From Pseudomonas caricapapayae (GTDB taxonomy: Bacteria > Pseudomonadota > Gammaproteobacteria > Pseudomonadales > Pseudomonadaceae): DNA of 64,000 bases. Both the position numbers and the translations under genes were made by a program. Below the pieces are notes generated by a model that searched no databases, was not told where the DNA came from, and was given only the letters and a program-made list of their open reading frames with translations. How positions within the stretch are numbered: the stretch's first letter is position 1; each line of letters starts with the position of its first letter. This document shows positions 11,075 through 61,047 of the stretch, one piece after another. Location: assembly GCF_001400735.1 (NCBI RefSeq), contig NZ_LJPW01000140.1, positions 1 through 64,000 of the forward strand, read 5' to 3'.

Positions 11075-12448
11075 TCAGGTCACGACCTGATAACACGGCA
11101 CGTAGGCCGCGCCGCCTGGCAGCTTCATCCGATGCTGGTCGACAAACGCCTGCAGCAATTTGTCCAGCGGGCCCATGATCGACGGGTCGCCGTGGATCTG
11201 ATAAGGACCGTGTTCTTCTATCAGGCGAATACCCTTGTCCTTGACGTTGCCTGCCACGATCCCGGAGAACGCCCGGCGCAGATTGGCGGCCAGTTCGTGA
11301 GTAGGGACTTCGTGGTTCAGTTGCAGCCTGGACATGTTCTCGTGGGTCGGATCGAACGGGTGCTGGAAGCTTTCCTCGATTTTCAGCAACCAGTTGAAGT
11401 GAAACGCATCGTTGCGCTCGCGGCGGAACTGCTTCACTTCTTTCAGGCCCTGGGTCATCTGCCGGGCCACGTCTGCCGGGTTATCGATGATGATCTGATA
11501 GTGGCGCTGCGCTTCTTCACCCAGCGTGGCACCGACGAATGCATGCAATTGTTGCAGGTACGGCTCGGTATTTTTCGGGCCGGTCAGGATTACCGGAAAC
11601 GGCACGTCCTTGTTGTCCGGGTGCATCAGGATGCCCAGCAGGTACAGAAACTCTTCGGCGGTGCCGGCGCCGCCAGGGAAGATGATGATGCCGTGACCGA
11701 CGCGCACGAAGGCTTCAAGACGTTTTTCGATGTCCGGCAGAATCACCAGTTCGTTGACGATCGGGTTGGGCGCTTCGGCGGCGATGATGCCCGGTTCGGT
11801 CAGGCCCAGGTAGCGACCGCCGACAATGCGTTGCTTGGCGTGAGCGATGGTCGCGCCTTTCATTGGGCCTTTCATCACACCAGGGCCACAGCCTGTGCAG
11901 ATGTCCAGGCTGCGCAGGCCCAGTTCGTGGCCGACTTTCTTGGTGTATTTGTATTCTTCGGTATTGATCGAATGACCACCCCAGCACACCACCATCTTCG
12001 GCTCGACGCCCGCACGCAGGGTGCGAGCGTTGCGCAGCAGGTGGAATACGTAATCGGTGATTCCCTGGGAATTGCTCAGGTCGATGCGCTGGCTGTCCAG
12101 CTCGCTCTCGGTGTAGACGATGTCGCGCAAGGCGCTGAACAGCATTTCTCGAGTGCTGGCGATCATTTCGCCATCGACGAACGCGTCGGCCGGAGCGTTG
12201 AGCAGCTCCAGGCGGACACCGCGGTCCTGTTGATGGATGCGCACTTCAAAACTCTCGTACGCTTCAAGAATAGTCTTGGCGTTGTCGACGTGGGCGCCGG
12301 TGTTGAGGATGGCCAGGGCGCACTGGCGGAACAGGGTATAGGTGCTGCCTGAACCCGCCGCGCTGAGCTGCTGCACTTCACGCTGGGACAGGGTTTCAAG
12401 GCTGCCTTTCGGGCTTACGGTGGCGTTAATCACTTGTCTTGGGATCAT
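11075..12448 (-). CDS. ppnN: Nucleotide 5'-monophosphate nucleosidase (YgdH/PpnN)
   Basis: A 457-residue cytoplasmic enzyme that splits purine and pyrimidine nucleotide monophosphates into base and ribose 5-phosphate, and in E. coli is tuned by (p)ppGpp. The central Rossmann-type LOG domain shows the signature FPGGAGTAEEFLYLLG. The N-terminal regulatory part (GSLETLSQREV onward) and the C-terminal part both match the YgdH layout. I chose ATG at 12448 because GGAAAA precedes it and it matches the E. coli N-terminus; ATG at 12460 or further up is possible. It stands alone and converges on pobR. Confidence 0.93.
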   Translation of the reverse strand: MIPRQVINATVSPKGSLETLSQREVQQLSAAGSGSTYTLFRQCALAILNTGAHVDNAKTILEAYESFEVRIHQQDRGVRLELLNAPADAFVDGEMIASTREMLFSALRDIVYTESELDSQRIDLSNSQGITDYVFHLLRNARTLRAGVEPKMVVCWGGHSINTEEYKYTKKVGHELGLRSLDICTGCGPGVMKGPMKGATIAHAKQRIVGGRYLGLTEPGIIAAEAPNPIVNELVILPDIEKRLEAFVRVGHGIIIFPGGAGTAEEFLYLLGILMHPDNKDVPFPVILTGPKNTEPYLQQLHAFVGATLGEEAQRHYQIIIDNPADVARQMTQGLKEVKQFRRERNDAFHFNWLLKIEESFQHPFDPTHENMSRLQLNHEVPTHELAANLRRAFSGIVAGNVKDKGIRLIEEHGPYQIHGDPSIMGPLDKLLQAFVDQHRMKLPGGAAYVPCYQVVT

Positions 12449-12900
12449 TCTATTTTCCATTAGAGCGATGCGGTCGAGCATCAGGATGGCGAACATCGGG
12501 AGCATTCACCCCTGTGAGGCCTTTTCTACAGCACTTGGCCGGGAAAGCAAACGTCGGACCACGCACGACCCGCGTTTGAGGCCTGATACGTTGTCGAGGG
12601 CGTAGGTCGGGGGCTGAATTCTTTCGAAAGCAGGAACTTGCTCTGCATGACCGTGCGGCTGAATTTTGACGCGAACACCGGGCAATAGTGAACCTGACCC
12701 CTTTAACAGAGTCTGTTAGCTGATGGACTTTCTGGACGGCCTGCACGAAAGGGATCCTCAGGTGCTTTTTCAGCGCGCCTGATAGGCAGACATTCCGTCC
12801 GGGCAGGAGTTGCAAAACCTTTGATCGCCTGCCGCTCCCATCCTTAGCCGGCCCGTTAAACGAGGCTTTATTTTCATTTCAGATAAAGATAATTATCGCC
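12449..12900. other. 452-base gap without a convincing gene
   Basis: This gap between divergent ppnN and the SH3 protein should hold both promoters. An open frame of about 120 codons on the minus strand (12450-12815) is Arg/Ser/Cys-rich and unlike any family I recognise. The main structured element is the palindrome at 12704-12718. Confidence 0.5.
12704..12718. repeat. 15-base palindrome TAACAGA-G-TCTGTTA
   Basis: Perfect 7-base arms around a single G in the ppnN/SH3 intergenic region, some 180 bases upstream of the SH3 gene. The symmetry suits a dimeric regulator, but no matching regulator is in the window and it could equally be remnant repeat sequence. Confidence 0.4.
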
Positions 12901-16236: not shown

Positions 16237-16421
16237 AACCTGCTCTTAAATGGCTTTAAACCCTGAACGGCTGTGTATCAGCATTATATTGACGCTGTGC
16301 AGCACAGCCGCGTCGTCCCGGTGACCCTCTGCGCGTCATGGTTTTGACTTTCGCCCCTCCAGCGTCTCCTTTGCATGCTTCTCCAGCCCGCTATCAGGGG
16401 CGCACGAGCACGTCCCGTGGC

Positions 16422-16439
16422 TTGGTTCGATTATTGCTA
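16422..16439 (+). promoter_or_regulatory. Sigma-54 promoter of the ACP-KAS III operon
   Basis: TTGGTTCGATTATTGCTAA has GG at 16424-16425 and GC at 16436-16437 with exactly 10 bases between, and a TTGCT -12 element. It closely resembles the flgF promoter at 38933. Transcription would start near 16449, about 60 bases before the acp start. Confidence 0.65.
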
Positions 16440-16451
16440 AGTTGCTATCAG

Positions 16452-16471
16452 GCGCAGGCTTTTGCCTGCGC
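16452..16471 (+). repeat. GC-rich hairpin at the 5' end of the acp transcript
   Basis: Perfect 8-base arms GCGCAGGC and GCCTGCGC around TTTT. If the sigma-54 promoter is right, this hairpin forms the very first bases of the mRNA and would protect its 5' end. Confidence 0.55.
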
Positions 16472-16509
16472 AGCATCAATTCAATAGCGGGTTGTCCGGG
16501 AGCATCGAG

Positions 16510-16716
16510 ATGGAAGACAAAGTACTCAGGCTGATCGAAGAAGCGATGGAAGCGGACGAAGGCACTGTGAGCAAGGGACAGAGCCTGGATTGGGACTCTA
16601 TTGCTGTCGTGACATTCATGTCGCTTGCCAATGAACATTTGGGCAAGAACCTTTCGGCCAACCGTCTCAACGCTTGCAAGAGTGTGGATGACGTCATCGG
16701 TCTGGTCACAGAGTAA
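16510..16716 (+). CDS. Acyl carrier protein of the glycan cassette
   Basis: A small acidic protein of 68 residues with the 4'-phosphopantetheine attachment site DWDSIAVV (Ser30), matching the DSL motif of acyl carrier proteins with Ile in place of Leu. It should carry the growing acyl chain for the ketoreductase, KAS III and acyltransferase encoded just downstream. The start at 16510 follows GGGAG; a longer reading from 16462 lies across the hairpin. It is divergent from housekeeping AcpP (shorter, without the usual GADSLD), so it looks dedicated to this pathway. Confidence 0.85.
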   Translation: MEDKVLRLIEEAMEADEGTVSKGQSLDWDSIAVVTFMSLANEHLGKNLSANRLNACKSVDDVIGLVTE

Positions 16717-16769
16717 CAAGCGATCAGGGACTTGCAGGCAGTGCCGTCAGCCCTCAAGAGGAACGTTGG

Positions 16770-17531
16770 GTGGTAAGTAATCCGTTTTCATTGAGCGGTA
16801 AAGTGATCATGGTCACGGGGGCCTCTTCCGGCATCGGCAGCCAGGTTGCGATATGGCTGAGTCAGCAGGGCGCTCGGGTGGTGCTCGTGGCCAGGAACAC
16901 CGAACGGCTTGAAGCCACGAGGTGCCAGCTCCACGGTGAAGGCCACGGCGTCGAGCCTTTCGATTTGCTGGACGGTCACGCTGTTCCCGCCTGGATGAAA
17001 AACCTTGCCAGGACCTACGCTCCCTTTGACGGGCTGGTGCATGCTGCCGGTGTGCAGATGCCACTGCCGATTCGAGCCCTGGCAATGGAGCAATGGGAAA
17101 CGGTATTTGCCACCAACGTGACTTCCGGCTTTTCGTTGATAAAGTCCTTCAGGCAGAAAGGGGTCTTTGTTCAAGGAGCCAGTATCGTTCTGCTTTCGTC
17201 GGTGATGGCTCAGGCCGCCCAGCCATCCCTGATGGCCTACTGCGCCAGTAAGGGCGCAGTTGAATCGATGGTCCGCGCTGCGGCACTTGAACTGGCCAGA
17301 GACGGAATAAGGGTCAATGCCATTGCGCCAGGCGTGGTGCGAACCGAAATGACCCGCAAGCTTGAGGACCTGGTCGGTATCGACTCCATGAACAGTGTGG
17401 AGCAGAAGCATCCGTTGGGGTTTGGTGAGCCGCTGGACGTCGCTTATGCGGTCAATTATCTGTTGTCCCCGGCTGCTCGCTGGGTAACCGGGACATCAAT
17501 GGTTGTGGATGGAGGATATCTGGCGCAATGA
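16770..17531 (+). CDS. FabG-like short-chain dehydrogenase (3-oxoacyl-ACP reductase)
   Basis: A 253-residue classical SDR with TGASSGIG (residues about 16-23), a catalytic Ser in LLSSVMAQ, YCASKGA for Tyr-Lys (about 157-161) and the C-terminal VVDGGYLAQ. It should reduce a 3-oxoacyl group on the neighbouring acyl carrier protein to 3-hydroxyacyl with NAD(P)H, as FabG does. The GTG start has AGAGGA upstream. Its stop overlaps the acyltransferase start by four bases. A 3-hydroxybutyryl group is known on the terminal viosamine of P. syringae flagellin, which fits this reaction. Confidence 0.86.
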   Translation: MVSNPFSLSGKVIMVTGASSGIGSQVAIWLSQQGARVVLVARNTERLEATRCQLHGEGHGVEPFDLLDGHAVPAWMKNLARTYAPFDGLVHAAGVQMPLPIRALAMEQWETVFATNVTSGFSLIKSFRQKGVFVQGASIVLLSSVMAQAAQPSLMAYCASKGAVESMVRAAALELARDGIRVNAIAPGVVRTEMTRKLEDLVGIDSMNSVEQKHPLGFGEPLDVAYAVNYLLSPAARWVTGTSMVVDGGYLAQ

Positions 17532-18169
17532 CTGCCAATAGATTGCTCATCGTCGGTGCCGGCGCTTTCGGCCGTGAAGTGCATGCGTGGCTGACGGATT
17601 GGGTGGAGAAGAACCCGGGATGGCTCATCGCCGGTTTCATCAATGATGGCCCCGGCTCAACCGAGCGATTCGACCATTATCCGCCTATCGTCTCGACGGT
17701 GGACGGTTATGAGCCAAAACCTGAAGAGTATTTGGTCTGCGCGATCGGCGAGCCGGGAGGCAAACGGCTGGTCGTGGAAAAACTGCTCGCCCGAGGCGCG
17801 AGATTTTTCACCCTGATCCACCCCTCGGTCATCATGGGTGCCAATGTTTCCATCGGCCAGGGGGCGGTCATCTGTCCGTCGACAGTGCTTTCGGTGGATC
17901 TTCGCATCGGTGCCTTTGTAACCCTCAATATTGGTTGTCTGGTGGGACATGACGCAGACATCGGTGATTTTTCTACCCTGAGTGGGCATTGCGATATCAC
18001 CGGCGGTGTCGTGCTGGAAGAGGGTGTCTTCATGGGGACGCACGCCAGCGTCCTGCCAAAAGTAAGGATCGGCAAACAGGCTGTGGTCGGTGCGGGCAGC
18101 GTTGCAATACGCAATGTGGCCGCAGGCACTACAGTATTCGGTGTACCTGCCACACGCATATCGGGGTAA
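17528..18169 (+). CDS. vioB: Sugar N-acyltransferase, NeuD/PglD hexapeptide family (VioB-like)
   Basis: A 213-residue trimeric-type acyltransferase. The N-terminal part has a Rossmann-like LLIVGAGAFGREV motif, and the C-terminal part is a left-handed beta-helix of hexapeptide repeats (about 95-205). The likely catalytic His is in LVGHDADIGDF (about 141). PglD-like enzymes acylate the 4-amino group of nucleotide-activated 4-amino-4,6-dideoxysugars. Here the acyl donor is probably the local acyl carrier protein rather than acetyl-CoA. It overlaps the SDR gene by four bases and precedes KAS III by five. Confidence 0.84.
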   Translation: MTANRLLIVGAGAFGREVHAWLTDWVEKNPGWLIAGFINDGPGSTERFDHYPPIVSTVDGYEPKPEEYLVCAIGEPGGKRLVVEKLLARGARFFTLIHPSVIMGANVSIGQGAVICPSTVLSVDLRIGAFVTLNIGCLVGHDADIGDFSTLSGHCDITGGVVLEEGVFMGTHASVLPKVRIGKQAVVGAGSVAIRNVAAGTTVFGVPATRISG

Positions 18170-18174
18170 CGCTC

Positions 18175-19191
18175 ATGGGCACTCATGCCAGGATCGTGAA
18201 CATAGAATATGAACTGCCTGTTCATTCGCTGGACAATGAAACGCTGGCGCGCGAATTTCCCGAGTGGGATGTCGAGAAGATCTTCTCGAAGACCGGTATT
18301 GGCGAGCGGCATATCATCGACAAGGATGAAACGGCCTCCGACCTGGCCTACCGGGCCTGCGAGAAGTTGTTTCTTGACGGGACTGTTCAGCGCAGCGAAA
18401 TAGATGCGTTGATTTACTGCACGCAAAGTCCGGATTACGTATTGCCCGCCACCGCCTGCATTCTGCAGCACCGCTTGCAGCTCCCCACCCACTGCGCTGC
18501 CTTCGACTTCAATCAGGGATGTTCAGGCTATATTTACGGGCTTGGCATCGCCAAGGGGCTGATCGAGTCGGGGCAATGCCGGAATGTATTGCTGGTGACG
18601 GCGGAAACCTACAGCCGCTACATTCATCCGCAGGACAAAAGTGTTCGTACTCTTTTCGGTGATGCTGCGGCCGTGACGCTGCTGAGCGCAACCGAGGGCG
18701 GGCCTTTTCTGGAGCGTTTCCGTTATGGCAGTGATGGCTCCGGGGCCGAAAACCTGATTGTGCCGATTGGCGGCGCGCGAAGACCGTCAGCAGAGAACCT
18801 TCAGCCTGCCGAGTACCAGGATGACAGTGGCAATGTTCGTACCGATGCCAACCTGTACATGAATGGCCCGGCGATTTTCGAGTTCTCGATGACGCGCGTA
18901 CCGCAGCTGTTCGCTTCGTTGTTCGATGACGGGCTGGATGTGGCCGATGTTGATCTGTTCGTATTTCACCAGGCCAATCACTTCATGCTGGATGCACTGC
19001 GCCGGCGTTTGAAGTTACCGGTCGAGAAGTTCGTTTCCGCCTTCCAGCACTGTGGCAATACGGTGTCGTGCACCATTCCTATTGCGCTGAAAGAGTCCTT
19101 GAATCGAGGGACGCTCAAACCGGGTGACCGGGTTGCCGCGGTGGGGTTCGGGGTGGGCTATTCGTGGGGGGCGTGCGTCATTCGCTGGTGA
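18175..19191 (+). CDS. KAS III-like 3-oxoacyl-ACP synthase of the glycan cassette
   Basis: A 338-residue thiolase-fold enzyme with the complete FabH triad: Cys116 in FNQGCSGY, His265 in FHQAN and Asn295 in HCGNTVS. It should condense an acyl-CoA with malonyl-ACP to make 3-oxoacyl-ACP. With the ketoreductase and carrier protein beside it, this makes a small dedicated acyl factory giving a 3-hydroxyacyl donor. The ATG at 18175 is the only start that keeps the family N-terminus; the longer frame upstream overlaps the acyltransferase in another phase. A second, divergent KAS III lies at 54416. Confidence 0.87.
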   Translation: MGTHARIVNIEYELPVHSLDNETLAREFPEWDVEKIFSKTGIGERHIIDKDETASDLAYRACEKLFLDGTVQRSEIDALIYCTQSPDYVLPATACILQHRLQLPTHCAAFDFNQGCSGYIYGLGIAKGLIESGQCRNVLLVTAETYSRYIHPQDKSVRTLFGDAAAVTLLSATEGGPFLERFRYGSDGSGAENLIVPIGGARRPSAENLQPAEYQDDSGNVRTDANLYMNGPAIFEFSMTRVPQLFASLFDDGLDVADVDLFVFHQANHFMLDALRRRLKLPVEKFVSAFQHCGNTVSCTIPIALKESLNRGTLKPGDRVAAVGFGVGYSWGACVIRW

Positions 19192-19198
19192 GCAACAC

Positions 19199-19234
19199 CG
19201 ATGCTCTGCGCCACAGCCCGGACGCAGAGCATCG
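19199..19234. terminator. Bidirectional hairpin between KAS III and the glycosyltransferase
   Basis: Perfect 12-base arms CGATGCTCTGCG and CGCAGAGCATCG around a 12-base loop, placed between two convergent genes 8 bases after the KAS III stop and 13 bases before the other. No strong T-run, but position and stem length suit a shared terminator. Confidence 0.7.
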
Positions 19235-19246
19235 CTCTTCCCCTGA

Positions 19247-22200
19247 TTAACCCTTCAGCCAGGCATCGTGCCAGGCTTGCAAGTGATCGGCCTCAAGCAT
19301 CCAGTTATCGATGACTGCCTGCCGCAAGGCATCGCCCCTGCGTGCACATTCACCCATCTGCTCGATGTGTTCCTCGATGGCGCTGATCCAGGCATCCGTT
19401 TCGTTTGTAACCCGAGTGACTGGCAAGCCTTCAGGAACGCCCAGCACATCACTGCAGATGGCTGCAAAACCACAGGCGCCGAACTCCAGCAAGGCCAACG
19501 GGCTTTTGCTCCGGTTGATCAGGTTCGACTCGGCCGGCACCAGCACCAGATCCAGATTCAGACTGGCTAAAGCCTGTGGGAACAATGTGCCCTCCACTGG
19601 CGAACGCAATTCATGGATGTAAGGGCGCAGCCAGCGTGTGCACGGTCCCATGACGACCCATTCAACACGGTCTGCCAGTGTTTTGATGACTTCTGACAGA
19701 ACCAGCAGGTCACCCGTTTGTGCCGCCGTGCCTACCCAACCCACACGGGGTCTGGGTCGAGTCTGGCGCTGGCCTTGCAGAGTGAGCCAGGGATCAGGCG
19801 CGAGCCGGGTTTCGACGACCTGCACATCCGGATGCGAATCTGCCAGCAGTTCGGCCAGCGCCTGGGTCGGTACGGTTACCCGGTCGGCTCGAGCCAGCCC
19901 ATGATGCAGATACGCCTGCACTGTGGCGAGCGGTGCAGCGCTCTTGTCGATTTCAGCGTAGGCCGGGTACTCCGGCAGGTCGTAGACCACCCGTGCATTG
20001 GTATGGTCCTTGATCGCATTGATGCTGGCGATCAGGCTTTCGTTGACCGGCCCCTGAATGACGACCGCGTCCGGGCTGAGCCTGGCGATCTCCACGAACG
20101 GAAGCGGCATGCGGCTGATGATGCTGTCTATCTTGCATTCGGCACGCAGGCTTTGCAGCACAGCACTGATGCGATTGCCGGCAGACGTGTGATTGCAGGG
20201 CTGAGCGAGGACCACGGGGAGTGGGCGGTGGGTCAATGGCCGCCAGCTCAATTCGGGGTTGCTCTGTGGCGCAAAGCTATTGGCCAGGTCCAGATTGCTG
20301 TTGTACGCAGGGTCCCAGGCCATGTAGTGCAGCCAGCGGTGGGAAAGCGCACGCGTTGCGAAATCCAGCGCTTCGGCGTCGCTCTGTGCGTTGTCCGGGC
20401 GCAGCGCAACGATGGCGTGCGGCGTCCAGACCACCATATGCCCGGTGCTGCGTGCCTTCAGGCAAAGGTCCACGTCATTGAAGTGCTGGGGGAACAAGTG
20501 TTCGTCCAGGCCTTGTACTTCTTCATGCAGCGACTTGCGGATCATCAGGCACGATCCGCTCACGGCACTGTAGTTCTGATCTGTTTCCAGGCGTTGTGCG
20601 TCGCTGGCGGAAGCTGCGATATCGCGGGCAGTGACGGCGTCGGCGGTGCCATTGAGGCCGACGATGATCCCGGCCTGTACGACGTTGCCATCCGTCGAAA
20701 TGAGTTTCGCACCGACAACTCCCACTTCAGGGCGCAGTGCGTGGTTGAGCAGGTGGTTGAGCCAGTCCTGCTGGATGATCAGGGCGTGGCAGTCGAGCAT
20801 CAGCAGATAGTCGCCCAGTGCGTGTCCGGAGGCGGAATTGAGCAGCGCCGACGGGCTCAATGTCTGCTCGTGGCGAACGATGCGGATCCGCTCCGACTGC
20901 ATCGAGTCGATGGTCGCCAGCCATTCGCTGGTCTGCGCCGACTGGCTGTTGTTGTCGCAGATCAGAATTTCATAGAACGGATACGTCGTGTTTTCCAGAA
21001 TGCTCTCTACGCAGGGCAACAGTGTCTCCAGTTGATCCTGTGAGGTCACCAGAATGGAAACCAGAGGCTGATCGGCATGGCCGTAGTCGATTCGGTAATG
21101 CCCCGACTCCAGTGCATGCACCTGACTGTCGGCGTAGCCACGCGTGTGCAGATGGCGTTGCACGGTGCGGGCCTGATCATAGTTGTCCTGCGCCTGCCAT
21201 AGTGGCGAGATGATGATCGGCTCGGGAGAGTGCACAAATTCGGTAAAGCCCGAGTCCTCGATCATGCGCAGGATCAAATCGAGCTCGATGGCCTGCGCGT
21301 GCCCCGGATCGAAACCGCCCACTGCCAGGGCTTTTTCGCGGTTGAACAGCCAGTTGCGGCTGGTTGCCATCGGGCAGCTCAGCAGGTAGTCCAGACTGAA
21401 GTCCGGGCGAAAGGCCAGATGGGCACCTGCCTGTGCATGCAGGGTCACTTCGTCGCCGAACACGGCACAGGCCTGGGGCGCTTCGATCATTTTCATCACG
21501 GCACACAGCAGGCCGCTCTGGGTAAAGGTTGTACCTGCATCGACCAGGATCCACCAGGCGTGGTCGTTTTCCTGCATCAGTTCGTTGATGACTGTTGCGC
21601 GGCTGTCCACGCTGGCATCCCGCCAGGGCAATTGGGCTTGCAATGGGGTCTGCTGGTCCCTGTCATAGTCGGCAAGGACAAAAACCTTGAGCCTGTCGAG
21701 CAGCGGCGCATCGGACGCCAGGCTTTGCAGCGTGCTCAGCACGCCCTCGGGTTGTTGATTGAAGTCCGACACGACAATCGCAATCGCAGGGCCGCCGTTG
21801 TGTTGTTGCAGGTGCTCATTGAGGAGCGCGTGCTGAGCAGGTGACGGGCGGCGATGGCCAAGCCAGCCGGCGACACGGGTGTTGCGAACGGTGGCTTCCG
21901 GCCTTCTGTCGAAGTAGGCCAGCAGGTCCATTTCCTGAATACTGTCGCGTTGTGACAGTGGAGCTACCTTGACCTTGCCATTAAGCTCGTCAGGCCTCAC
22001 CCAGCCCAGTTCTGCGGGGATGCGACTGAAGTTGGCGTGACCTTCGCGAGGCAGGGTCGGGTCTTTTCTGAATGCCTCGCTGCTCTGCTGGTCCGAAACA
22101 CGGAAATAGGACAGCGGGCGGGCAAGCATTGCCAGATTGCCATGACGCAAGAGCTTTGCGTACATGGCCAGATCACCCAGCCCCCAGATCAGCACCTGCT

Positions 22201-22768
22201 GCAAAGACATGATGTCTTGCCCGAATGCCAATAGATCGTCACGACGGCACATGACTGCACTAGGCTCGCCGACGAAGTTGATCGGGTGTCTGGCCAGAAA
22301 GGACACCAGCTCCGGGCCGTTCAACACAACGTTTTTGCCAAATGGGTAGGCGGTGTAGATATTGTCCGCCAGCAGAGCACCGTCGGCGTCGATCCTTTTT
22401 CTGGTCGCTGAAACGACTTTGATGTCGGGACTGTCATGCATGACATCGAACATCAGCCGCACGCAGTCCGGCAGAAGGATGTCATCGTCGTAGAGAAACT
22501 TGATGTAATCGCCACGCGCACGAGCTATTGCATGTGCAATGTTGTGAGGTTCGCCCAGCGGCGTTGCGTTTTTGAAATAGTGAATGGGCCAGCGGCTGTC
22601 CGGGCTGAGCTTTTCGACAATCAGCTTGATCCCGTCGTCCCGGCAGTCGTCGGTGACGATGATCTCGACGTCGTCGTGGTTCTGGCGCAGCGCGCTGGCA
22701 AGCGCCGCTTCGAAGAAAGCCGGTTTGTAAGCGGGGATGACAATACTGACCAGGCGTGAAGGGCTCAT
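19247..22768 (-). CDS. vioT: Very large multidomain glycosyltransferase (VioT-like)
   Basis: A cytoplasmic 1173-residue protein built from several transferase modules: an N-terminal GT2 domain (about 5-230; VSIVIPAYKPAFF, with acidic DDD in FLYDDDILLP), a middle degenerate GT-like segment (about 340-560), a second GT2 domain (about 565-800; LVSILVTSQDQ) and a C-terminal GT4-like domain (about 1000-1165; RPRVGWVGTAAQ). It is paralogous to Fgt1 and Fgt2: all share the phrase RPEVGxVG in the second GT2 domain. In pv. tabaci a transferase of this cassette adds modified viosamine to the flagellin glycan; this gene is the candidate. It ends the leftward arm. Confidence 0.85.
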   Translation of the reverse strand: MSPSRLVSIVIPAYKPAFFEAALASALRQNHDDVEIIVTDDCRDDGIKLIVEKLSPDSRWPIHYFKNATPLGEPHNIAHAIARARGDYIKFLYDDDILLPDCVRLMFDVMHDSPDIKVVSATRKRIDADGALLADNIYTAYPFGKNVVLNGPELVSFLARHPINFVGEPSAVMCRRDDLLAFGQDIMSLQQVLIWGLGDLAMYAKLLRHGNLAMLARPLSYFRVSDQQSSEAFRKDPTLPREGHANFSRIPAELGWVRPDELNGKVKVAPLSQRDSIQEMDLLAYFDRRPEATVRNTRVAGWLGHRRPSPAQHALLNEHLQQHNGGPAIAIVVSDFNQQPEGVLSTLQSLASDAPLLDRLKVFVLADYDRDQQTPLQAQLPWRDASVDSRATVINELMQENDHAWWILVDAGTTFTQSGLLCAVMKMIEAPQACAVFGDEVTLHAQAGAHLAFRPDFSLDYLLSCPMATSRNWLFNREKALAVGGFDPGHAQAIELDLILRMIEDSGFTEFVHSPEPIIISPLWQAQDNYDQARTVQRHLHTRGYADSQVHALESGHYRIDYGHADQPLVSILVTSQDQLETLLPCVESILENTTYPFYEILICDNNSQSAQTSEWLATIDSMQSERIRIVRHEQTLSPSALLNSASGHALGDYLLMLDCHALIIQQDWLNHLLNHALRPEVGVVGAKLISTDGNVVQAGIIVGLNGTADAVTARDIAASASDAQRLETDQNYSAVSGSCLMIRKSLHEEVQGLDEHLFPQHFNDVDLCLKARSTGHMVVWTPHAIVALRPDNAQSDAEALDFATRALSHRWLHYMAWDPAYNSNLDLANSFAPQSNPELSWRPLTHRPLPVVLAQPCNHTSAGNRISAVLQSLRAECKIDSIISRMPLPFVEIARLSPDAVVIQGPVNESLIASINAIKDHTNARVVYDLPEYPAYAEIDKSAAPLATVQAYLHHGLARADRVTVPTQALAELLADSHPDVQVVETRLAPDPWLTLQGQRQTRPRPRVGWVGTAAQTGDLLVLSEVIKTLADRVEWVVMGPCTRWLRPYIHELRSPVEGTLFPQALASLNLDLVLVPAESNLINRSKSPLALLEFGACGFAAICSDVLGVPEGLPVTRVTNETDAWISAIEEHIEQMGECARRGDALRQAVIDNWMLEADHLQAWHDAWLKG

Positions 22769-22842
22769 CGCAATACCACTTTTGAAAAAGTTTTAAAAAC
22801 CAACCGGACAACGCAGCCGGCGTCCATGACCTGCAGTTGCCG

Positions 22843-23568
22843 TCAGGCTTTTCGGCCGATGTACAGAACCGACTGTTCTGTAATGCCGTGCTGCTTGAAG
22901 ATGCCTTCGCCGAATGCCTGCGAACCGAGGGCATCGACGTCGAAGCCTGCCTGTATCAGGCGGGACTGAAAGTCATGTTTGGCATACATCCGCACATGAT
23001 CGTCCTGACCGAAGCGCGCCCAGCGCTCGTCGACGCTTGGCTCATCCGGGTCTTCTTCTGTTTCGGTGGCGGTCAGCAGGATGGGCACCATCAGGATGGC
23101 AGAGCCGCCCTTGGCCAGTACCCGAAACAGCTCGGACATGGCCTTGCGGTCATCTGGTACGTGCTCAAGTACGTGCGAGCACACGATGAAATCGAAAGAC
23201 TCGTCGGCATACATGTGCATGTCCATGATGTCGACCACGTCATCGGCCAGCGGCGAGAACAGGTCGGCCGAACGATAGCGGGCGTTGGGCAGGCTGCGCA
23301 GGAACCTTGAAAGCACAACTGCCGGCGCGATATCGAGGATGCGCAATGGTTTGCCTGGCGGGTTGTTCAGCATGTGCATCGCGTACAGCGCATAAAGCCG
23401 GTCGCGATCCGATGCCACGCATTCGGGGCAGCTGTACTGCGCAACGTTCAGGGTTTCGAAATCTTCAATGCAGTAGTGGACGTTGAGGCGGTGGAGGATT
23501 TCCAGGTGGCTTCTGCCCAACGGATAGAAGTTTGGAAAACGACAGGAGCAGACCGGGCACGTTCGCAT
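22843..23568 (-). CDS. SAM-dependent methyltransferase with Cys-rich N-terminus
   Basis: A 241-residue class I methyltransferase. The SAM-binding region shows LRILDIAPA and the post-core VCSHVLEHVPDD typical of the UbiE/Methyltransf_11 group. Ahead of it are paired cysteines in RTCPVCSC (4, 7, 9) and SCPECVA (48, 51), suggesting a zinc ribbon. P. syringae flagellin viosamine bears a 2-O-methyl group, so it probably methylates the sugar. Its ATG shares one base with the aminotransferase TAA, which couples translation. Confidence 0.84.
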   Translation of the reverse strand: MRTCPVCSCRFPNFYPLGRSHLEILHRLNVHYCIEDFETLNVAQYSCPECVASDRDRLYALYAMHMLNNPPGKPLRILDIAPAVVLSRFLRSLPNARYRSADLFSPLADDVVDIMDMHMYADESFDFIVCSHVLEHVPDDRKAMSELFRVLAKGGSAILMVPILLTATETEEDPDEPSVDERWARFGQDDHVRMYAKHDFQSRLIQAGFDVDALGSQAFGEGIFKQHGITEQSVLYIGRKA

Positions 23569-24686
23569 TAGCAGTTCTCTTTACTGGCGGTGGCGATCAC
23601 ATTGATGATGCTGTCGAAGGCTTCATCCGTCAGGCTGTCGAAGATCGGCAGGCACAGAATCTGGCTGGACAGACCGGTCGCGACGCGCAGGCGTTCAGGT
23701 TTGGCCGAGTCAAGGCCGCGGTACATGGGAAATGTGGAAATGAGCGGGTAAAAATAGCGGCGCGCAAGGATGTCATGGTCGCGAAACCGCTGATAAAGGT
23801 CATCGCGGGAAATCGCAAAGTCTTCGGTCACCAGTACCGGAAAATACGAGTAATTGTGTTTTTCGGTGCTTTTCCAGAGAATTTTCAGCCCCGGGATTGT
23901 TGCCAGGGCGTCGCGATAGCGTTCGTCGATACGTTGCCGCTTGAGAAGCGCTTCATCGATGTACTTCAGCTGAAGCAGACCGAATGCGGCGTTGATTTCA
24001 CTCATTTTGCCGTTGATCCCCGGCGCAACCACGGTGACTTCGTCGGCGAAGCCGAAGTTCTTCAGGTAATCGATGCGTTGCTTGGTCTTGGCATCCGGGC
24101 TGATGATCGCCCCGCCTTCGAACGTGTTGAACACTTTGGTGGCGTGAAAGCTCAGCACCGACAGATCACCATGATTCAACAGGCTCTGGCCGCGATGCTG
24201 CACACCGAACGCGTGAGCGGCATCGTAGATGACCTTCAGGCCATAGCGGTCGGCGATCTGCTGGATCCGGTCCACGTCGCATGGAATGCCGTAGCAATGT
24301 ACGGGCATGATCGCCGTGGTTGCCGGGGTGATGGCTTCTTCGATGCGGTCCGGGTCCAGGTTGTAAGTGCCCGGATCGATGTCGACAAACACGGGCGTCA
24401 GGCTATTCCAGAGCAACGAATGGGCAGTCGCCACGAAGGAGTAGGGCGTGGTGATGACCTCGCCCTTGATGCGCAGCGCCTGAATGGCGGTCATCAACGC
24501 CAGGGTGCCATTGGAAAACAGCGAGAGGTGCTGCACGCCCAGATACTCGGCCAGCTCCTTTTCGAGTTGCTGGTGAAACGGGCCGCCATTGGTGAGCTGG
24601 CGGCTTTCCCATATGTGTTCGAGATAGGGAATGAACTCCTCCAGAGGCGGTAACAGAGGACGAGTTACGGGAATCGGTGCGCTCAT
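23568..24686 (-). CDS. vioA: DegT/DnrJ/EryC1 sugar aminotransferase (VioA-like)
   Basis: A 372-residue PLP enzyme. The Schiff-base Lys is in SFHATKVFNTFEGG (about Lys184), with the cofactor Asp in VIYDAAHAFG and the substrate loop TPYSFVATAH. Family members aminate 4-keto-6-deoxy-hexose nucleotides. With a PglD-like acyltransferase, methyltransferase and flagellin transferase nearby, the best match is dTDP-4-amino-4,6-dideoxyglucose (viosamine) aminotransferase. The starting dTDP-4-keto-6-deoxyglucose would come from RmlA and RmlB encoded elsewhere. It is the first gene of the leftward arm, with a sigma-54 motif upstream. Confidence 0.87.
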   Translation of the reverse strand: MSAPIPVTRPLLPPLEEFIPYLEHIWESRQLTNGGPFHQQLEKELAEYLGVQHLSLFSNGTLALMTAIQALRIKGEVITTPYSFVATAHSLLWNSLTPVFVDIDPGTYNLDPDRIEEAITPATTAIMPVHCYGIPCDVDRIQQIADRYGLKVIYDAAHAFGVQHRGQSLLNHGDLSVLSFHATKVFNTFEGGAIISPDAKTKQRIDYLKNFGFADEVTVVAPGINGKMSEINAAFGLLQLKYIDEALLKRQRIDERYRDALATIPGLKILWKSTEKHNYSYFPVLVTEDFAISRDDLYQRFRDHDILARRYFYPLISTFPMYRGLDSAKPERLRVATGLSSQILCLPIFDSLTDEAFDSIINVIATASKENC

Positions 24687-24752
24687 GGAGGCTTCTCTGC
24701 TCGTGTTTTATCCGATTGCGGTTCGAAAGGGCATTTGCTTCAAGCGCTTCCC

Positions 24753-24768
24753 TGCAAGGAGGCCGCCA
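24753..24768 (-). promoter_or_regulatory. Sigma-54 promoter of the vioA-methyltransferase-glycosyltransferase arm
   Basis: On the minus strand TGGCGGCCTCCTTGCA gives GG and GC exactly 10 bases apart, with the canonical TGGC and TTGCA elements. Transcription would start near 24742, about 56 bases before vioA. It is the mirror of the promoter at 16422 for the other arm. Confidence 0.65.
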
Positions 24769-24968
24769 TTGACATAAAAATGACAGTCGAACTGTTGTGA
24801 CCGGGGTACACAGCAAGAACCCGGCCAAGACTGTGTTCGTGGGGTGGCGCGACAGTTGAGTCGTGATGGCCTTCACTAAGTCGTTTCAGTGCTTGATATC
24901 CCGAACGCGCGCTGCGTATTTTGTACGGATTGCCGCCGAGCGGCCTGGACGATGACAAAGGATTGACC

Positions 24969-29660: not shown

Positions 29661-30419
29661 TTACATAGCCACTTCCACCTGACCTGGGCCGGTGACGTTC
29701 GCTTTGATCACCCGCTGGGAATTAAGGTTTTTCACCCGTATCTGTTCGTTGAAACCTCCGTCGGACATCGCCTCGCCAGGCATGCGCACCGCCAGCGAAC
29801 CGCTACGGGCGATGATCACCACCTGATCGCCCTTGTGAATCATTTGTGGTTGTTCCAGCGCCACCGGGGTAATGACCTGGTCGATGACCATTTGTCGGAC
29901 AACCTTCTGACCGACTGCCTGATCGAGAGAGGCGAGGAATCCCTGACCCAGGCTGCTCACATCACGCTCACGAAGCGCGACGTCTTCTTCGGTGACGATG
30001 GCGTCGCGTTTCAGCGGGCGCATCACGGTTACTACGTTGCGATACAGCAGCACCTGGGCCGGCACGAACACTGTCCAGGGCGAAGAACCTTCACAGCGCA
30101 CCCGCACCGTGACCCGTCCTACCGGACGCGGACTTTCCAGTGTGGCTGTCAAATCCTTGTCGCAAGCACCCATCCGCAAACGCGGGTCGAGCTGCTTGAC
30201 CTGTATGTCATGACGTCCGTCAATCTGGTTGGTTGCCAAATAGTCTTCTACTGTGAACTCAAGAAACCCCTGGGTGACGCCGATAAGCTGTTCAGGCAGT
30301 GTGAAATTCTCGGCACGAGCGAGGCTCACCGTGCCGGAAAGGCACAGCAGGGCGATTGCGCACAGAAGCCTGCGGGTTTCTAATGCGAGGTGTCGAGAAA
30401 TTGTCGTCTTAGCGTTCAT
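29661..30419 (-). CDS. flgA: P-ring assembly chaperone FlgA
   Basis: A 252-residue periplasmic protein with a signal peptide (cleavage near SLARA-ENF, residue 36) and the C-terminal SAF domain (GDQVVIIARSGSLAVRMPG and VEVAM end). It helps FlgI subunits assemble into the P ring. ATG at 30419 gives the normal N-terminus; the frame stays open much further up but that part runs across cheV on the other strand. The sigma-54 motif at 30431-30447 would place the transcript start only a base or two before this ATG. Confidence 0.93.
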   Translation of the reverse strand: MNAKTTISRHLALETRRLLCAIALLCLSGTVSLARAENFTLPEQLIGVTQGFLEFTVEDYLATNQIDGRHDIQVKQLDPRLRMGACDKDLTATLESPRPVGRVTVRVRCEGSSPWTVFVPAQVLLYRNVVTVMRPLKRDAIVTEEDVALRERDVSSLGQGFLASLDQAVGQKVVRQMVIDQVITPVALEQPQMIHKGDQVVIIARSGSLAVRMPGEAMSDGGFNEQIRVKNLNSQRVIKANVTGPGQVEVAM

Positions 30420-30430
30420 GACGTAATAAA

Positions 30431-30447
30431 TAGCAAAGCCCGTGCCG
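30431..30447 (-). promoter_or_regulatory. Sigma-54 promoter of flgA
   Basis: On the minus strand CGGCACGGGCTTTGCTA has GG and GC 10 bases apart and a strong match to TGGCACG-N4-TTGCT. Expected to need FleQ. The predicted start is near 30421, almost at the flgA ATG. Confidence 0.72.
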
Positions 30448-30497
30448 CTTGTTGATCCGGTGTCTGGGCGGCGGTCATTTTGGTAAGGGGGTTCGGC

Positions 30498-31424
30498 ATG
30501 GCAGGTGTAATGGATTCGGTAAACCAGCGAACTCAGCTGGTGGGTCAGAATCGCCTGGAGCTGCTCTTGTTCCGTCTCGACGGCAAGCAGCTCTACGGGA
30601 TCAATGTCTTCAAGGTAAAAGAAGTACTGCAATGCCCGAAACTCACCATCATGCCCAAGTCGAGCAAGATCGTTCGGGGTGTAGCCAATATTCGTGGCGG
30701 TACCATCCCGATCATGGATCTGGCGATGGCAACCGGTTCCACAGGCATGATTTCGCTGGTCAACTCCTTCGTCATCATCACCGAGTACAACACCAAGGTT
30801 CAGGGTTTTCTGGTGCATTCTGTCGAACGCATCGTCAATATGAACTGGGAAGAGATTCATCCACCACCCAAGGGCACCGGGCGCGATCATTACCTGACCG
30901 CCGTTACCCGGGTTGATAACCAGTTGGTGGAAATTATCGACGTCGAGAAAATTCTCGCTGAAGTTGCACCTATTTCCGAAGAAGTGTCGGTCGGTGTAAT
31001 CGACTCCGAGGTGCACCACAAGGCAATATCCTTGCGCGTGCTGACAGTCGATGACTCATCGGTTGCGCGTAAGCAGGTGAGTCGTTGTCTGGAAACCGTC
31101 GGTGTGGAAGTGGTTGCCCTCAATGATGGCCGTCAGGCGCTGGATTACCTGCGCAAGATGGTCGAAGAGGGTAAAAAGCCTGAAGAAGAGTTCCTGATGA
31201 TGATCTCCGACATTGAAATGCCGGAGATGGATGGCTATACCCTTACAGCTGCGATACGCAACGATCCGCGTATGCAGAAGATGCACATCACCTTGCATAC
31301 CTCTCTGTCCGGGGTATTCAACCAGGCGATGGTCAAGAAAGTCGGCGCTGATGATTTTCTCGCGAAATTCCGGCCTGATGACCTTGCGGCCAGGGTTGTG
31401 GCGCGGATCAAGGCAGCAGAATAA
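30498..31424 (+). CDS. cheV: Chemotaxis coupling-receiver protein CheV
   Basis: A 308-residue protein with an N-terminal CheW domain (about 15-165; ELLLFRLDGKQLYGINVFKV, VRGVANIRGG) and a C-terminal receiver domain (about 178-305) with phospho-acceptor Asp in MISDIEMPEMDG (about 238). It links receptors to CheA and aids adaptation. The start at 30498 follows AAGGGG; six codons upstream are also open. It is divergent from flgA and precedes cheR by 51 bases, the usual Pseudomonas order. Confidence 0.95.
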   Translation: MAGVMDSVNQRTQLVGQNRLELLLFRLDGKQLYGINVFKVKEVLQCPKLTIMPKSSKIVRGVANIRGGTIPIMDLAMATGSTGMISLVNSFVIITEYNTKVQGFLVHSVERIVNMNWEEIHPPPKGTGRDHYLTAVTRVDNQLVEIIDVEKILAEVAPISEEVSVGVIDSEVHHKAISLRVLTVDDSSVARKQVSRCLETVGVEVVALNDGRQALDYLRKMVEEGKKPEEEFLMMISDIEMPEMDGYTLTAAIRNDPRMQKMHITLHTSLSGVFNQAMVKKVGADDFLAKFRPDDLAARVVARIKAAE

Positions 31425-33426: not shown

Positions 33427-33606
33427 ATTACGCGTCGATTGAGGCAATGATAGGGCGGTGCCGCTGCCAGGCGGCAAGCCGATACTGGCAAAAAAACGGC
33501 ACCCGGCTTGCCGCTTTCCCCTTCGGCAGCGGAAATGCCTTGCCGCTTTTCTGGCATTGCCGCCTTGCTGGCATCTCCGGCCCCTGTAAACACTGGCTTT
33601 TGCAAC

Positions 33607-39003: not shown

Positions 39004-39744
39004 GTGGACAAGTTGCTTTACGTCGCAATGAGCGGTGCATCCGAAAACGCGATCGCGCAGAAGGCTCACGCCAACAACCTGGCAAACGTCTCGACCAACG
39101 GTTTCATGCGTGACCTTGAACAGGCCCGCTCGATGCCGGTGTTTGGCGAGGTCATGCCGTCGCGTGCCTACGCGATGAGTGAACGTCCGGGCACTGACTT
39201 TTCCGCGGGTGCCATGGTCGAGACCGGCCGTGAACTGGACATCGCCGTCAAGGGCGACGGCTGGATTGCGGTGCAGACTCCCGACGGTGGTGAAGCCTAC
39301 ACCCGCAGTTCCGGCATGAACATCGACGCCCTCGGCGTGCTGCGTGACGGCAGTGGTTTGCCGGTAATGGGCAACGGCGGTCCGATTGCCGTGCCGCCTC
39401 AGCAGCAGATCGAGATCGGTGCCGACGGCACCATCAGCATTCGTTCGCTGGGCGAGAGCCCGCAGGTGATGGCGCAGGTCGACCGTATCAAGCTGGTCCG
39501 GCCTGACCTCAAGACCATGGAGAAGGGCCCCGATGGCTTGATCCACACCAAGAGTGGCCGGCCTGCCGACGCAGACGCCACCGTTCAGGTCGAGTCCGGC
39601 TTTCTGCAGGCGAGCAACGTCAATGCGGTCGAGGAAATGACCTCGGTACTGGCCTTGTCCCGTCAATTCGAATTGCACGTCAAGATGATGAAGACCGCCG
39701 AAGAAGACGACCAGTCGATGGCGCGCGTCTTGCAACTTGGCTAA
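39004..39744 (+). CDS. flgF: Flagellar proximal rod protein FlgF
   Basis: A 246-residue rod protein starting at GTG with a strong GGAGGAGG site. It has the N-terminal axial helix (LLYVAMSGASENAIAQKAHANNLANVS) and the C-terminal block VNAVEEMTSVLALSRQFELHVKMMK. It joins the proximal rod between FlgC and FlgG. First gene of the second hook-basal body operon, with its own sigma-54 promoter. Confidence 0.96.
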   Translation: MDKLLYVAMSGASENAIAQKAHANNLANVSTNGFMRDLEQARSMPVFGEVMPSRAYAMSERPGTDFSAGAMVETGRELDIAVKGDGWIAVQTPDGGEAYTRSSGMNIDALGVLRDGSGLPVMGNGGPIAVPPQQQIEIGADGTISIRSLGESPQVMAQVDRIKLVRPDLKTMEKGPDGLIHTKSGRPADADATVQVESGFLQASNVNAVEEMTSVLALSRQFELHVKMMKTAEEDDQSMARVLQLG

Positions 39745-59571: not shown

Positions 59572-61047
59572 ATGTGGCGTGAAATCAAGATTCTGCTAAT
59601 CGATGACGATAGCCAGCGCCGCCGGGATCTGGCGGTTATCCTGAATTTTCTTGGCGAAGAAAATCTCTCCTGTTCAAGCCAGGACTGGCAACAGGTGGTC
59701 GGCTCTCTGGCGTCCCCACGAGAAGTGCTGTGCGTGCTGGTCGGTAGCGTAAGTGCTCCGGGCAGCCTGCAAGGGCTTCTTAAGACCATCGCAGCATGGG
59801 ATGAGTTCCTTCCGGTGCTGCTGATGAGTGAAAATTCTTCTGTCGAGCTGCCGGAGGACTTGCGCAGGCGGGTTCTTTCCGCGCTCGAGATGCCTCCCAG
59901 CTACAGCAAGCTGCTCGACTCCCTGCACCGTGCCCAGGTCTATCGCGAGATGTACGATCAGGCCCGTGAGCGCGGTCGTCATCGAGAGCCCAACCTGTTC
60001 CGCAGCCTGGTAGGCACCAGTCGCGCGATTCAGCACGTGCGGCAGATGATGCAGCAGGTTGCAGATACCGACGCCAGCGTACTGATTCTTGGCGAGTCGG
60101 GGACCGGCAAGGAAGTGGTTGCGCGCAACCTGCATTACCACTCCAAGCGCCGCGACGCGCCGTTCGTGCCGGTCAACTGCGGTGCCATTCCCGCCGAACT
60201 GCTCGAAAGCGAGTTGTTCGGGCATGAGAAGGGCGCGTTCACCGGTGCAATCACCAGCCGTGCAGGCCGCTTCGAGCTGGCCAACGGCGGTACGTTGTTT
60301 CTCGATGAAATCGGCGACATGCCGCTGCCGATGCAGGTCAAACTGCTTCGCGTCCTGCAGGAGCGCACATTCGAGCGAGTGGGCAGCAACAAGACGCAGA
60401 GCATCGACGTGCGCATTATTGCCGCGACGCACAAGAACCTCGAAAACATGATCGAGCTTGGCAGCTTCCGCGAAGACCTTTATTACCGTCTCAATGTGTT
60501 CCCCATCGAGATGGCACCGTTGCGCGAACGTGTCGAAGACATACCGCTGTTGATGAACGAGCTGATCTCGCGCATGGAGCACGAAAAGCGCGGCTCGATC
60601 CGATTCAACTCGGCCGCGATCATGTCGCTTTGCCGTCATGCCTGGCCGGGCAACGTCCGTGAGCTGGCCAACCTGGTCGAGCGCATGGCGATCATGCACC
60701 CCTATGGTGTGATCGGTGTGGCCGAGCTGCCGAAGAAATTCCGCTACGTTGATGACGAAGACGAGCAGATGGTCGACAGCATGCGCAGCGATATCGAAGA
60801 GCGCGTTGCCATCAACAGCAACACGCCGAACTTCGCTTCTGGCGCGATGCTGCCCCCCGAAGGGCTTGATCTGAAAGACTACCTTGGTGGTCTGGAGCAA
60901 GGCCTGATCCAGCAGGCGCTCGATGATGCCAACGGTATTGTCGCCCGCGCTGCGGAGCGCTTGCGGATTCGTCGCACCACACTGGTAGAGAAGATGCGCA
61001 AGTACGGTATGAGCCGTCGTGAAGGTGACGAACAGGCAGATGATTGA
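59572..61047 (+). CDS. fleQ: Flagellar master regulator FleQ
   Basis: A 491-residue sigma-54 activator and c-di-GMP sensor. The N-terminal receiver-like domain (1-120) keeps the fold (ILLIDDD) but has Gly/Ser where the phospho-Asp should be ([11 protein letters not shown]), as in known FleQ. The AAA+ domain has GESGTGKE (about 174) and GAFTGA (about 222). A Fis-type helix-turn-helix ends it ([20 protein letters not shown]). It activates fleSR and basal-body genes and is opposed by FleN, encoded elsewhere. Confidence 0.97.

What the first reader, a model, noticed from the sequence alone, without database searches (positions are those of the whole stretch)
16422..24768. Both arms of the glycan cassette carry flagellar-type sigma-54 promoters
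GG-N10-GC motifs stand before the ACP operon (16422-16439, plus) and before the aminotransferase operon (24753-24768, minus). The first looks like the flgF promoter, the second matches TGGC-N7-TTGCA. If real, acyl-sugar synthesis is switched on by RpoN and FleQ or FleR together with the basal body, so the glycan is ready before FliA makes flagellin. Other gene cassettes in the window outside the flagellar set lack such motifs in the places I checked.
Basis: partly seen in the sequence, partly recalled or inferred. Interest (0 to 1): 0.72.

Follow-up and report, generated by a model that had tools for sequence, protein, structure and literature searches.

The report
Flagellar promoters drive a flagellin sugar

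Summary
The cassette is the published viosamine island (acp-vioR-vioB-vioS and, on the other strand, vioA-vioM-vioT), which makes a flagellin sugar. Site 1 (16422-16438, plus) is real: nearly invariant in 12 of 12 aligned loci in a poorly conserved gap; a similar core precedes acp in 18 of 21 loci. A site 59 bases further upstream, TTGGCCGGGTTCTTGCT (24812-24828, minus), keeps GG/GC in 16 of 16 aligned loci and recurs before 20 of the 30 best VioA matches in the genus (20 of 22 near flagellar genes or flagellar-type glycosyltransferases, 0 of 8 elsewhere). A FleQ-like box lies 41-44 bases downstream, the spacing seen at fliE and flhA. The acp core is closest to flgF and has a similar box about 87 bases upstream. 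Both arms are very probably RpoN promoters of the flagellar programme; vioA looks FleQ-type, acp is open between FleQ and FleR. Nothing was measured. RpoN control of flagellin-glycan genes is known in Helicobacter/Campylobacter, and RpoN2/FleQ control in Xanthomonas; the library searched gave no report for Pseudomonas.

The parts
16422..16438 (+). sigma-54 -24/-12 core of the acp-vioR-vioB-vioS operon, TTGGTTCGATTATTGCT; predicted +1 near 16449 (inferred)
   Evidence: near-invariant in 12 of 12 aligned loci; variant cores in 6 more distant ones; no core in 3 of 21 loci examined
16335..16348 (+). Enhancer-like box GTCATGGTTTTGAC, 87 bases upstream of the core
   Evidence: 0.85 identity against mean 0.61; a similar box, picked by pattern, at -86 to -91 in 18 of 18 acp loci with a core; best hit in 13 of 18 by a matrix trained on fliE only
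16280..16293 (+). Possible second box AGCATTATATTGAC, 142 bases upstream of the core
   Evidence: at least 9 of 13 FleQ-consensus letters at -140 to -142 in 9 of 18 loci
16510..16716 (+). acp, acyl carrier protein
   Evidence: PF00550
16770..17531 (+). vioR, 3-oxoacyl-ACP reductase family (SDR)
   Evidence: PF13561 (from 16773); 253 aa as published
17528..18169 (+). vioB, PglD-like hexapeptide acyltransferase
   Evidence: PF00132/PF17836; 213 aa as published
18175..19191 (+). vioS, 3-oxoacyl-ACP synthase III
   Evidence: PF08541/PF08545; 338 aa as published
19247..22768 (-). vioT, viosamine transferase
   Evidence: PF00535, two stretches; 1173 aa as published
22843..23568 (-). vioM, methyltransferase
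   Evidence: PF13489; 241 aa as published
23568..24686 (-). vioA, dTDP-sugar aminotransferase
   Evidence: PF01041; 372 aa as published
24812..24828 (-). Conserved sigma-54 core of the vioA-vioM-vioT operon, TTGGCCGGGTTCTTGCT; predicted +1 near 24801 (inferred)
   Evidence: GG/GC in 16 of 16 aligned loci; core present in 20 of the 30 vioA loci
24771..24784 (-). FleQ-like box GTCATTTTTATGTC, 44 bases downstream of the start of the core (about +18 to +31, inferred)
   Evidence: best FleQ-consensus match between offsets 36 and 48 falls at 41-44 in 31 of 31 loci with a core (scores 7-10 of 13; at least 9 in 25 of 31); same offset as fliE and flhA
24753..24768 (-).

Best explanation
The two halves of the viosamine island are each read from an RpoN (sigma-54) promoter that belongs to the flagellar programme. 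Shown by sequence: a -24/-12 core upstream of each leading gene, conserved far better than its surroundings, each accompanied by a FleQ-type box at a near-fixed distance. Inferred: at vioA, FleQ binds the box just downstream of the start point and drives RpoN polymerase, as at fliE and flhA; at acp, an enhancer-binding protein (FleQ, or FleR as expected for flgF) acts from about 87 bases upstream. The sugar enzymes would then be made with the basal body and before FliA-dependent flagellin.
For: acp core rank 2 of 263 windows and vioA core rank 4 of 272 in conservation. Of 7 noncoding candidate sites in 21 kb only these two keep GG/GC in 7 of 7 relatives. The vioA core stays with vioA when the upstream neighbour changes (gs-like, PseB-like, KAS III-like, glycosyltransferase or fliC-like gene divergent, or flgL-like on the same strand; neighbours named by eye). 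A core is found in 20 of 22 vioA loci near flagellar genes or flagellar-type glycosyltransferases and in 0 of 8 others (Fisher 7.7e-6; with flagellar genes proper only, 14 of 16 against 6 of 14, p = 0.019). The downstream box is at 41-44 in vioA and the FleQ-consensus mean peaks at +43 in fliE (30 of 30 loci anchored) and flhA (28 of 30). A matrix trained on fliE alone puts the best vioA hit at 41-45 in 17 of 31 and the best acp hit at -92 to -85 in 13 of 18. No sigma-70-like or FliA-like promoter found before either arm. One RpoN gene and two NtrC-type regulators in the fleQ and fleR positions. Precedent: RpoN2/FleQ regulates the gigX flagellin-glycosylation genes of Xanthomonas oryzae (PMC8657755 passages).
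Against: No transcript data. The letters alone are near chance. The published FleQ consensus is called unreliable in P. fluorescens F113 (PMC6120874). A flhA-trained matrix finds the vioA box in 0 of 31 and the acp box in 6 of 18; the acp-trained matrix finds the vioA box only behind positions inside the core; averaged over acp loci the fliE matrix scores a position inside the core slightly above -87. A matrix from vioA boxes scores flgB higher than acp in this window. The 41-45 interval was chosen after seeing vioA. Loci share ancestry, so p-values are too small. acp has no core in 3 of 21 loci (L072-L074). vioA has no core in 2 of 22 flagellar loci (L092, L101), nor in L074, a further locus with acp-vioR-vioB-vioS and vioA but no flagellar or glycosyltransferase match within its 19.5 kb.
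Confidence: 0.84

Rival explanations
1. Both arms are RpoN promoters and FleQ activates both directly (both early, class II).
For: The vioA box is at the fliE/flhA spacing; the acp box reads GTCATGTTTTTGAC in L001 and is found by the fliE matrix in 13 of 18; in Xanthomonas oryzae the flagellin-glycan genes are class II under RpoN2/FleQ (PMC8657755 passages).
Against: The acp core is nearest flgF in 18 of 18, and published Pseudomonas schemes put rod and hook genes under FleR (PMC9436044 passage; PMC3930126 passage).
Confidence: 0.4
2. Split control: vioA-vioM-vioT is FleQ-dependent (class II) and acp-vioR-vioB-vioS is FleR-dependent (class III), so the two halves come on at successive stages.
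For: acp core nearest flgF 18 of 18, vioA core nearest flhA 23 of 31; the acp-trained matrix peaks at -89 in flgF, the acp position.
Against: No FleR site is known to me; flgF of the window and its near relatives (L165-L169) shows no T-rich box at -89, and the acp-trained matrix has a second flgF peak at +43; the acp box also fits the FleQ consensus; the margin of vioA for flhA over flgB is small (7.67 against 7.23 of 13 free positions).
Confidence: 0.33
3. The conserved cores are RpoN promoters answering to another activator (for example NtrC, because a glutamine-synthetase-like gene is the divergent neighbour of vioA).
For: RpoN serves many activators (general knowledge).
Against: The gs-like gene has its own sigma-70-like promoter; the vioA core persists where gs is not the neighbour and was not found in the 8 vioA loci without flagellar or glycosyltransferase genes.
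Confidence: 0.07
4. The cores are conserved for some other reason and the arms are transcribed by sigma-70 or by read-through.
For: Motif counts alone are near chance.
Against: No sigma-70-like match before acp or vioA; two independent cores with the same spacing rule and invariant GG and GC in the alignments.
Confidence: 0.07

Closest known systems
Viosamine island of P. syringae pv. tabaci 6605 (Yamamoto et al. 2011, PMC3927599; passages read)
   Same: Same seven genes beside gs and a transporter, with product lengths 372, 241, 1173, 338, 213 and 253 (acp 68 here, 69 there).
   Different: The word promoter does not occur in that paper's main text; control is not treated in the passages seen.
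gigX flagellin-glycosylation genes of Xanthomonas oryzae pv. oryzae under RpoN2/FleQ (review PMC8657755, passages; original Yu et al. 2018 not seen)
   Same: A flagellin-glycosylation island switched on by RpoN with FleQ, ahead of FliA-dependent flagellin.
   Different: Other island (ten genes), other genus, second RpoN; no promoter layout seen in the passages.
FleQ/RpoN promoters fliE and flhA (Jyot et al. 2002, not held; known here through the text and reference list of PMC6120874)
   Same: RpoN core, FleQ-like box about 43 bases downstream of the core start.
   Different: Drives sugar biosynthesis and not export or basal-body genes; FleQ binding not shown; box letters differ from flhA's.
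flgF operon promoter
   Same: TTGG-TTCG core, 13 of 13 free positions identical in the closest pair; box GCCGNTTTTTCGNC at exactly -89 in 15 of 30 flgF loci.
   Different: The syringae-type flgF (L165-L169) lacks that box; the leaders differ.
RpoN-dependent flagellin glycosylation genes of Helicobacter/Campylobacter (PMC3930126 passage; PMC5368276 abstract)
   Same: Same idea: sugar enzymes switched on with the middle flagellar genes.
   Different: Other sugar (pseudaminic acid, recalled), other activator (FlgR), other lineage.

Membership tests
RpoN (sigma-54) -24/-12 promoter | GG and GC ten bases apart, near TGGCACG-N4-TTGCW, kept by selection | tested here: met
RpoN (sigma-54) -24/-12 promoter | Start site about 12 bases after the GC and loss of transcript without RpoN | not testable with these tools
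   needs RNA from wild type and rpoN mutant
FleQ-dependent promoter with downstream box, fliE/flhA type (vioA) | FleQ-like box at the offset seen in fliE and flhA | tested here: met
   By cross-trained matrices: 17 of 31 with fliE, 17 of 31 with fleS, but 0 of 31 with flhA and 3 of 31 with flgF
FleQ-dependent promoter with downstream box, fliE/flhA type (vioA) | FleQ binds and is required | not testable with these tools
   needs binding assay and fleQ mutant
flgF-type promoter (acp) | Core nearest flgF among flgB, flgF, fliE, flhA, fleS | tested here: met
   18 of 18
flgF-type promoter (acp) | Same upstream box as flgF of the same genome | tested here: not met
   L165 (own flgF) has no T-rich box at -89; 15 of 30 flgF loci do at exactly that offset
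Viosamine island | acp, vioR, vioB, vioS, vioT, vioM, vioA with the published sizes and order | tested here: met

The most novel reading that the evidence does not exclude
The island is wired into two successive steps of the flagellar cascade: the aminotransferase, methyltransferase and glycosyltransferase arm by a fliE/flhA-type FleQ promoter (early), the acyl-chain arm by a flgF-type promoter (middle, FleR). A cell stalled between the steps could make the amino sugar but not its 3-hydroxybutyryl cap, so the cap would act as a mark that the hook-basal body stage was reached; and c-di-GMP, through FleQ, would tune flagellin glycosylation.
Probability: 0.25. Interest if true: 0.62.

Novelty: new member of a known kind. 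Interest (0 to 1): 0.4.

Why it matters
Flagellin glycosylation in P. syringae pv. tabaci is required for virulence (PMC3927599 abstract). If its sugar pathway is a true part of the RpoN/FleQ flagellar regulon, glycan supply, motility and c-di-GMP state are coupled by design, and two short elements help to predict which vioA-like genes in other Pseudomonas genomes serve the flagellum. It also adds two promoters, with many orthologues, to the material from which a FleQ site can be defined; published attempts found none that is robust (PMC6120874).

Tried and rejected
Motif counting as proof: rejected, since counts are near chance in the window and the genome. FliA or sigma-70 promoters for the two arms: none found at the thresholds used (FliA consensus recalled). 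A clean FleQ-against-FleR verdict for acp: tried with five flagellar promoters, left open. Literature: 10 of 10 searches used; 14 papers were opened, as passages, and one of them (PMC5368276) as abstract and outline; none was read whole. None of what I saw reports RpoN or FleQ control of the viosamine island, but two papers looked up by id are not held, most listed papers were not opened, and prior description in journals outside the library cannot be excluded.

Errors of mine, corrected: one search read genome-search loci without turning them; searches used a wrong pattern length and found nothing (redone in 44 and 57; the null stands); the flgF part was anchored on the flgG paralogue (shown in 67, redone in 68); the random-stretch control printed in 38 and 39 was drawn from both strands of whole loci and is only a rough guide (142 of 1040 random 350-base stretches reach 9, 46 reach 10). 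Rows dropped before counts: duplicates L062, L063, L064 and L066 for the promoter alignments; L009 and L070 for the vioA arm, because their own stretches do not contain its upstream DNA (the same genomes enter as L078 and L079); L072 and L073 for the vioA arm, because their best match is 32% identical; L010 and the more distant loci are not in the acp alignment but are; matches below the best 30 (42-58% identity) were not examined; L074 is outside and so outside the table of 30.
Full report
What the region is. The cassette at 16.5-24.7 kb is the viosamine island described in P. syringae pv. tabaci 6605: gene set, product families and product lengths agree (PMC3927599, passages read). It makes dTDP-N-(3-hydroxy-1-oxobutyl)-2-O-methylviosamine and transfers it to flagellin glycan. 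It runs as two converging arms: acp-vioR-vioB-vioS on the plus strand and vioA-vioM-vioT on the minus strand. The window belongs to a Pseudomonas of the syringae complex; the closest locus in the search of named genomes is P. amygdali ICMP 3918 (VioS 96% identical).

Is the motif there? Yes at site 1; at site 2 the letters are there but mean little. The window has 970 GG-N10-GC pairs; 60 have at least 9 of 12 consensus letters against about 47 expected, 18 have at least 10 against about 9. Genome-wide, YTGGNNCGNNNNTTGCW has 18 matches and its reversed control 20.

Conservation decides. Twelve acp upstream regions were aligned; the 17 columns at 16422 are 0.99 identical against a mean of 0.61 (rank 2 of 263; rank 1 is the same site shifted by one). 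Among 54 coding sites 13 are kept in 7 of 7, as codon constraint would give.

Wider test. Across 21 acp loci (the window and 20 others), 18 have a core at -72 to -95 from the start codon and 3 (L072-L074) have none. A search of 199 Pseudomonas genomes with VioA gave 46 genomes with matches; I examined the 30 best matches (58-100% identity). A TGGC-N8-TGCW core stands 85-170 bases before the start codon in 20 of 30 (recount in 81). All 20 lie in stretches that also hold flagellar genes or fgt/vioT-type glycosyltransferases (in L084 the only such match is 26-29% identical, and L079's stretch is only 7.5 kb); of the 10 without a core, 2 (L092, L101) lie in such stretches and 8 do not, three of them directly behind a gene that reads by eye as rmlA. 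Fisher p is 7.7e-6 on that broad label and 0.019 when only flagellar genes proper count (14 of 20 with a core against 2 of 10 without); shared ancestry makes both too small. L074, a further vioA locus outside the 30, has no core and no flagellar or glycosyltransferase match in 19.5 kb, although it has acp, vioR, vioB and vioS. Where present, the core stays with vioA while its upstream neighbour changes.

The boxes. A FleQ-like sequence lies 41-44 bases downstream of the start of the vioA core in 31 of 31 loci with a core, when the best offset between 36 and 48 is taken; scores run from 7 to 10 of 13 letters of GTCANTAAATTGAC, and 25 of 31 reach 9, where a rough null from the same pool gives 5% (the consensus and the warning that it is unreliable come from PMC6120874). 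As a less circular test I aligned known flagellar promoters, taking for each gene the 30 loci returned from a search of 40 genomes. fliE (30 of 30 anchored) most often has GTCAAAAAATTGCG at +43, flhA (28 of 30) GTCAAAAGTTTGCT at +43, fleS (30 of 30) TCCGTTTAACTGAC at +33; flgB (29 of 30) peaks at -9 and +25, not at +43. A matrix trained on fliE alone finds the best vioA hit at 41-45 in 17 of 31 and the best acp hit at -92 to -85 in 13 of 18; a fleS matrix gives 17 of 31 and 6 of 18; a flhA matrix gives 0 of 31 and 6 of 18; a flgF -89 matrix gives 3 of 31 and 8 of 18. In this genome the offsets are 44 (vioA), 44 (flhA) and 43 (fliE, tied with a second match at 92). PMC6120874 reports, citing Jyot et al. 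2002, that FleQ acts near the promoter at flhA, fliE and fliL and from a distance at fleSR; the vioA layout fits the first mode. fliL of this genome shows no such box at +43 in the vioA-matrix scan (best at +54).

The acp arm. All 18 acp cores are closest to flgF cores (mean 9.0 of 13 free positions; the next, fleS, 7.3), whereas vioA cores are closest to flhA in 23 of 31 by a small margin. An upstream box, picked by pattern, stands 86-91 bases before the acp core in 18 of 18, and a matrix from it peaks at -89 in flgF, with a second peak at +43; 15 of 30 flgF loci have GCCGNTTTTTCGNC at exactly -89. But the flgF of the window and its nearest relatives lacks that box, and a matrix from vioA boxes scores flgB of this window higher (13.6) than the acp box (10.6), while ranking the acp box first in 11 of the 12 acp loci given to it, out of 18. 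So whether FleQ or FleR serves acp is not settled.

Other promoters. No sigma-70-like match precedes acp or vioA; one precedes the divergent gs-like gene (TTGATA-18-TATTTT, 24893-24922). No FliA-like match with at least 9 of 12 letters was seen. The genome has one sigma-54, and NtrC-type regulators lie at 59572-61047 and 62384-63802; their names FleQ and FleR rest on gene position and recall.

Known or new. In Helicobacter and Campylobacter, enzymes for flagellin glycosylation are RpoN-dependent (PMC3930126 passage; PMC5368276 abstract). In Xanthomonas oryzae, RpoN2/FleQ regulates the flagellin-glycosylation genes gigX1-10 (PMC8657755 passages), so the principle is known with the same activator in a related class of bacteria. 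For Pseudomonas, AlgU-dependent changes of fgt1 and fgt2 are reported (PMC9436044 passages), but the held library gave no report of RpoN or FleQ control of the viosamine island in what I saw; papers outside it could hold one. I file the finding as a new member of a known kind: a flagellin-glycan cassette under flagellar RpoN promoters, with the detail that its two arms appear to use two different promoter types. Timing before flagellin is inference from the published cascade.

Noticed in passing
12546-12561 (minus), before ORF 11075-12505: A further RpoN-like site TGGTCCGACGTTTGCT, 10 of 12 letters, GG/GC kept in 5 of 7 relatives, upstream of an ORF that I did not identify.
   Followed up: no
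24893-24922 (plus): Sigma-70-like promoter TTGATA-18-TATTTT of the gs-like gene, in the best conserved part of the vioA-gs gap.
   Followed up: partly
about 33547-33561, upstream of flgB; also L135-L164: A conserved TTTTCTGGCATTGCC element some 60 bases before the flgB RpoN core in many of 29 Pseudomonas loci; a candidate site for FleR.
   Followed up: no
39718-39734 (plus): ATGGCGCGCGTCTTGCA, 11 of 12 RpoN letters, at the 3' end of the gene before flgG; an ATGGC...TGCA site stands there in 24 of 29 loci. Either codon constraint or an internal promoter for flgG.
   Followed up: no
30432-30447 (minus): CGGCACGGGCTTTGCT, 11 of 12 RpoN letters, inside ORF 29661-31019.
   Followed up: no
L020, L067, L068, L070-L074: A second KAS III paralogue (41-45% identical to VioS) lies about 1.5 kb from vioS in the more distant relatives.
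   Followed up: no
L007 (5289-8599), L005, L009: Extra DNA splits the island: about 3 kb between acp and vioR in L007 (acp match covers only 53 residues), about 1.5 kb between vioS and vioT in L005 and 4.5 kb in L009.
   Followed up: no
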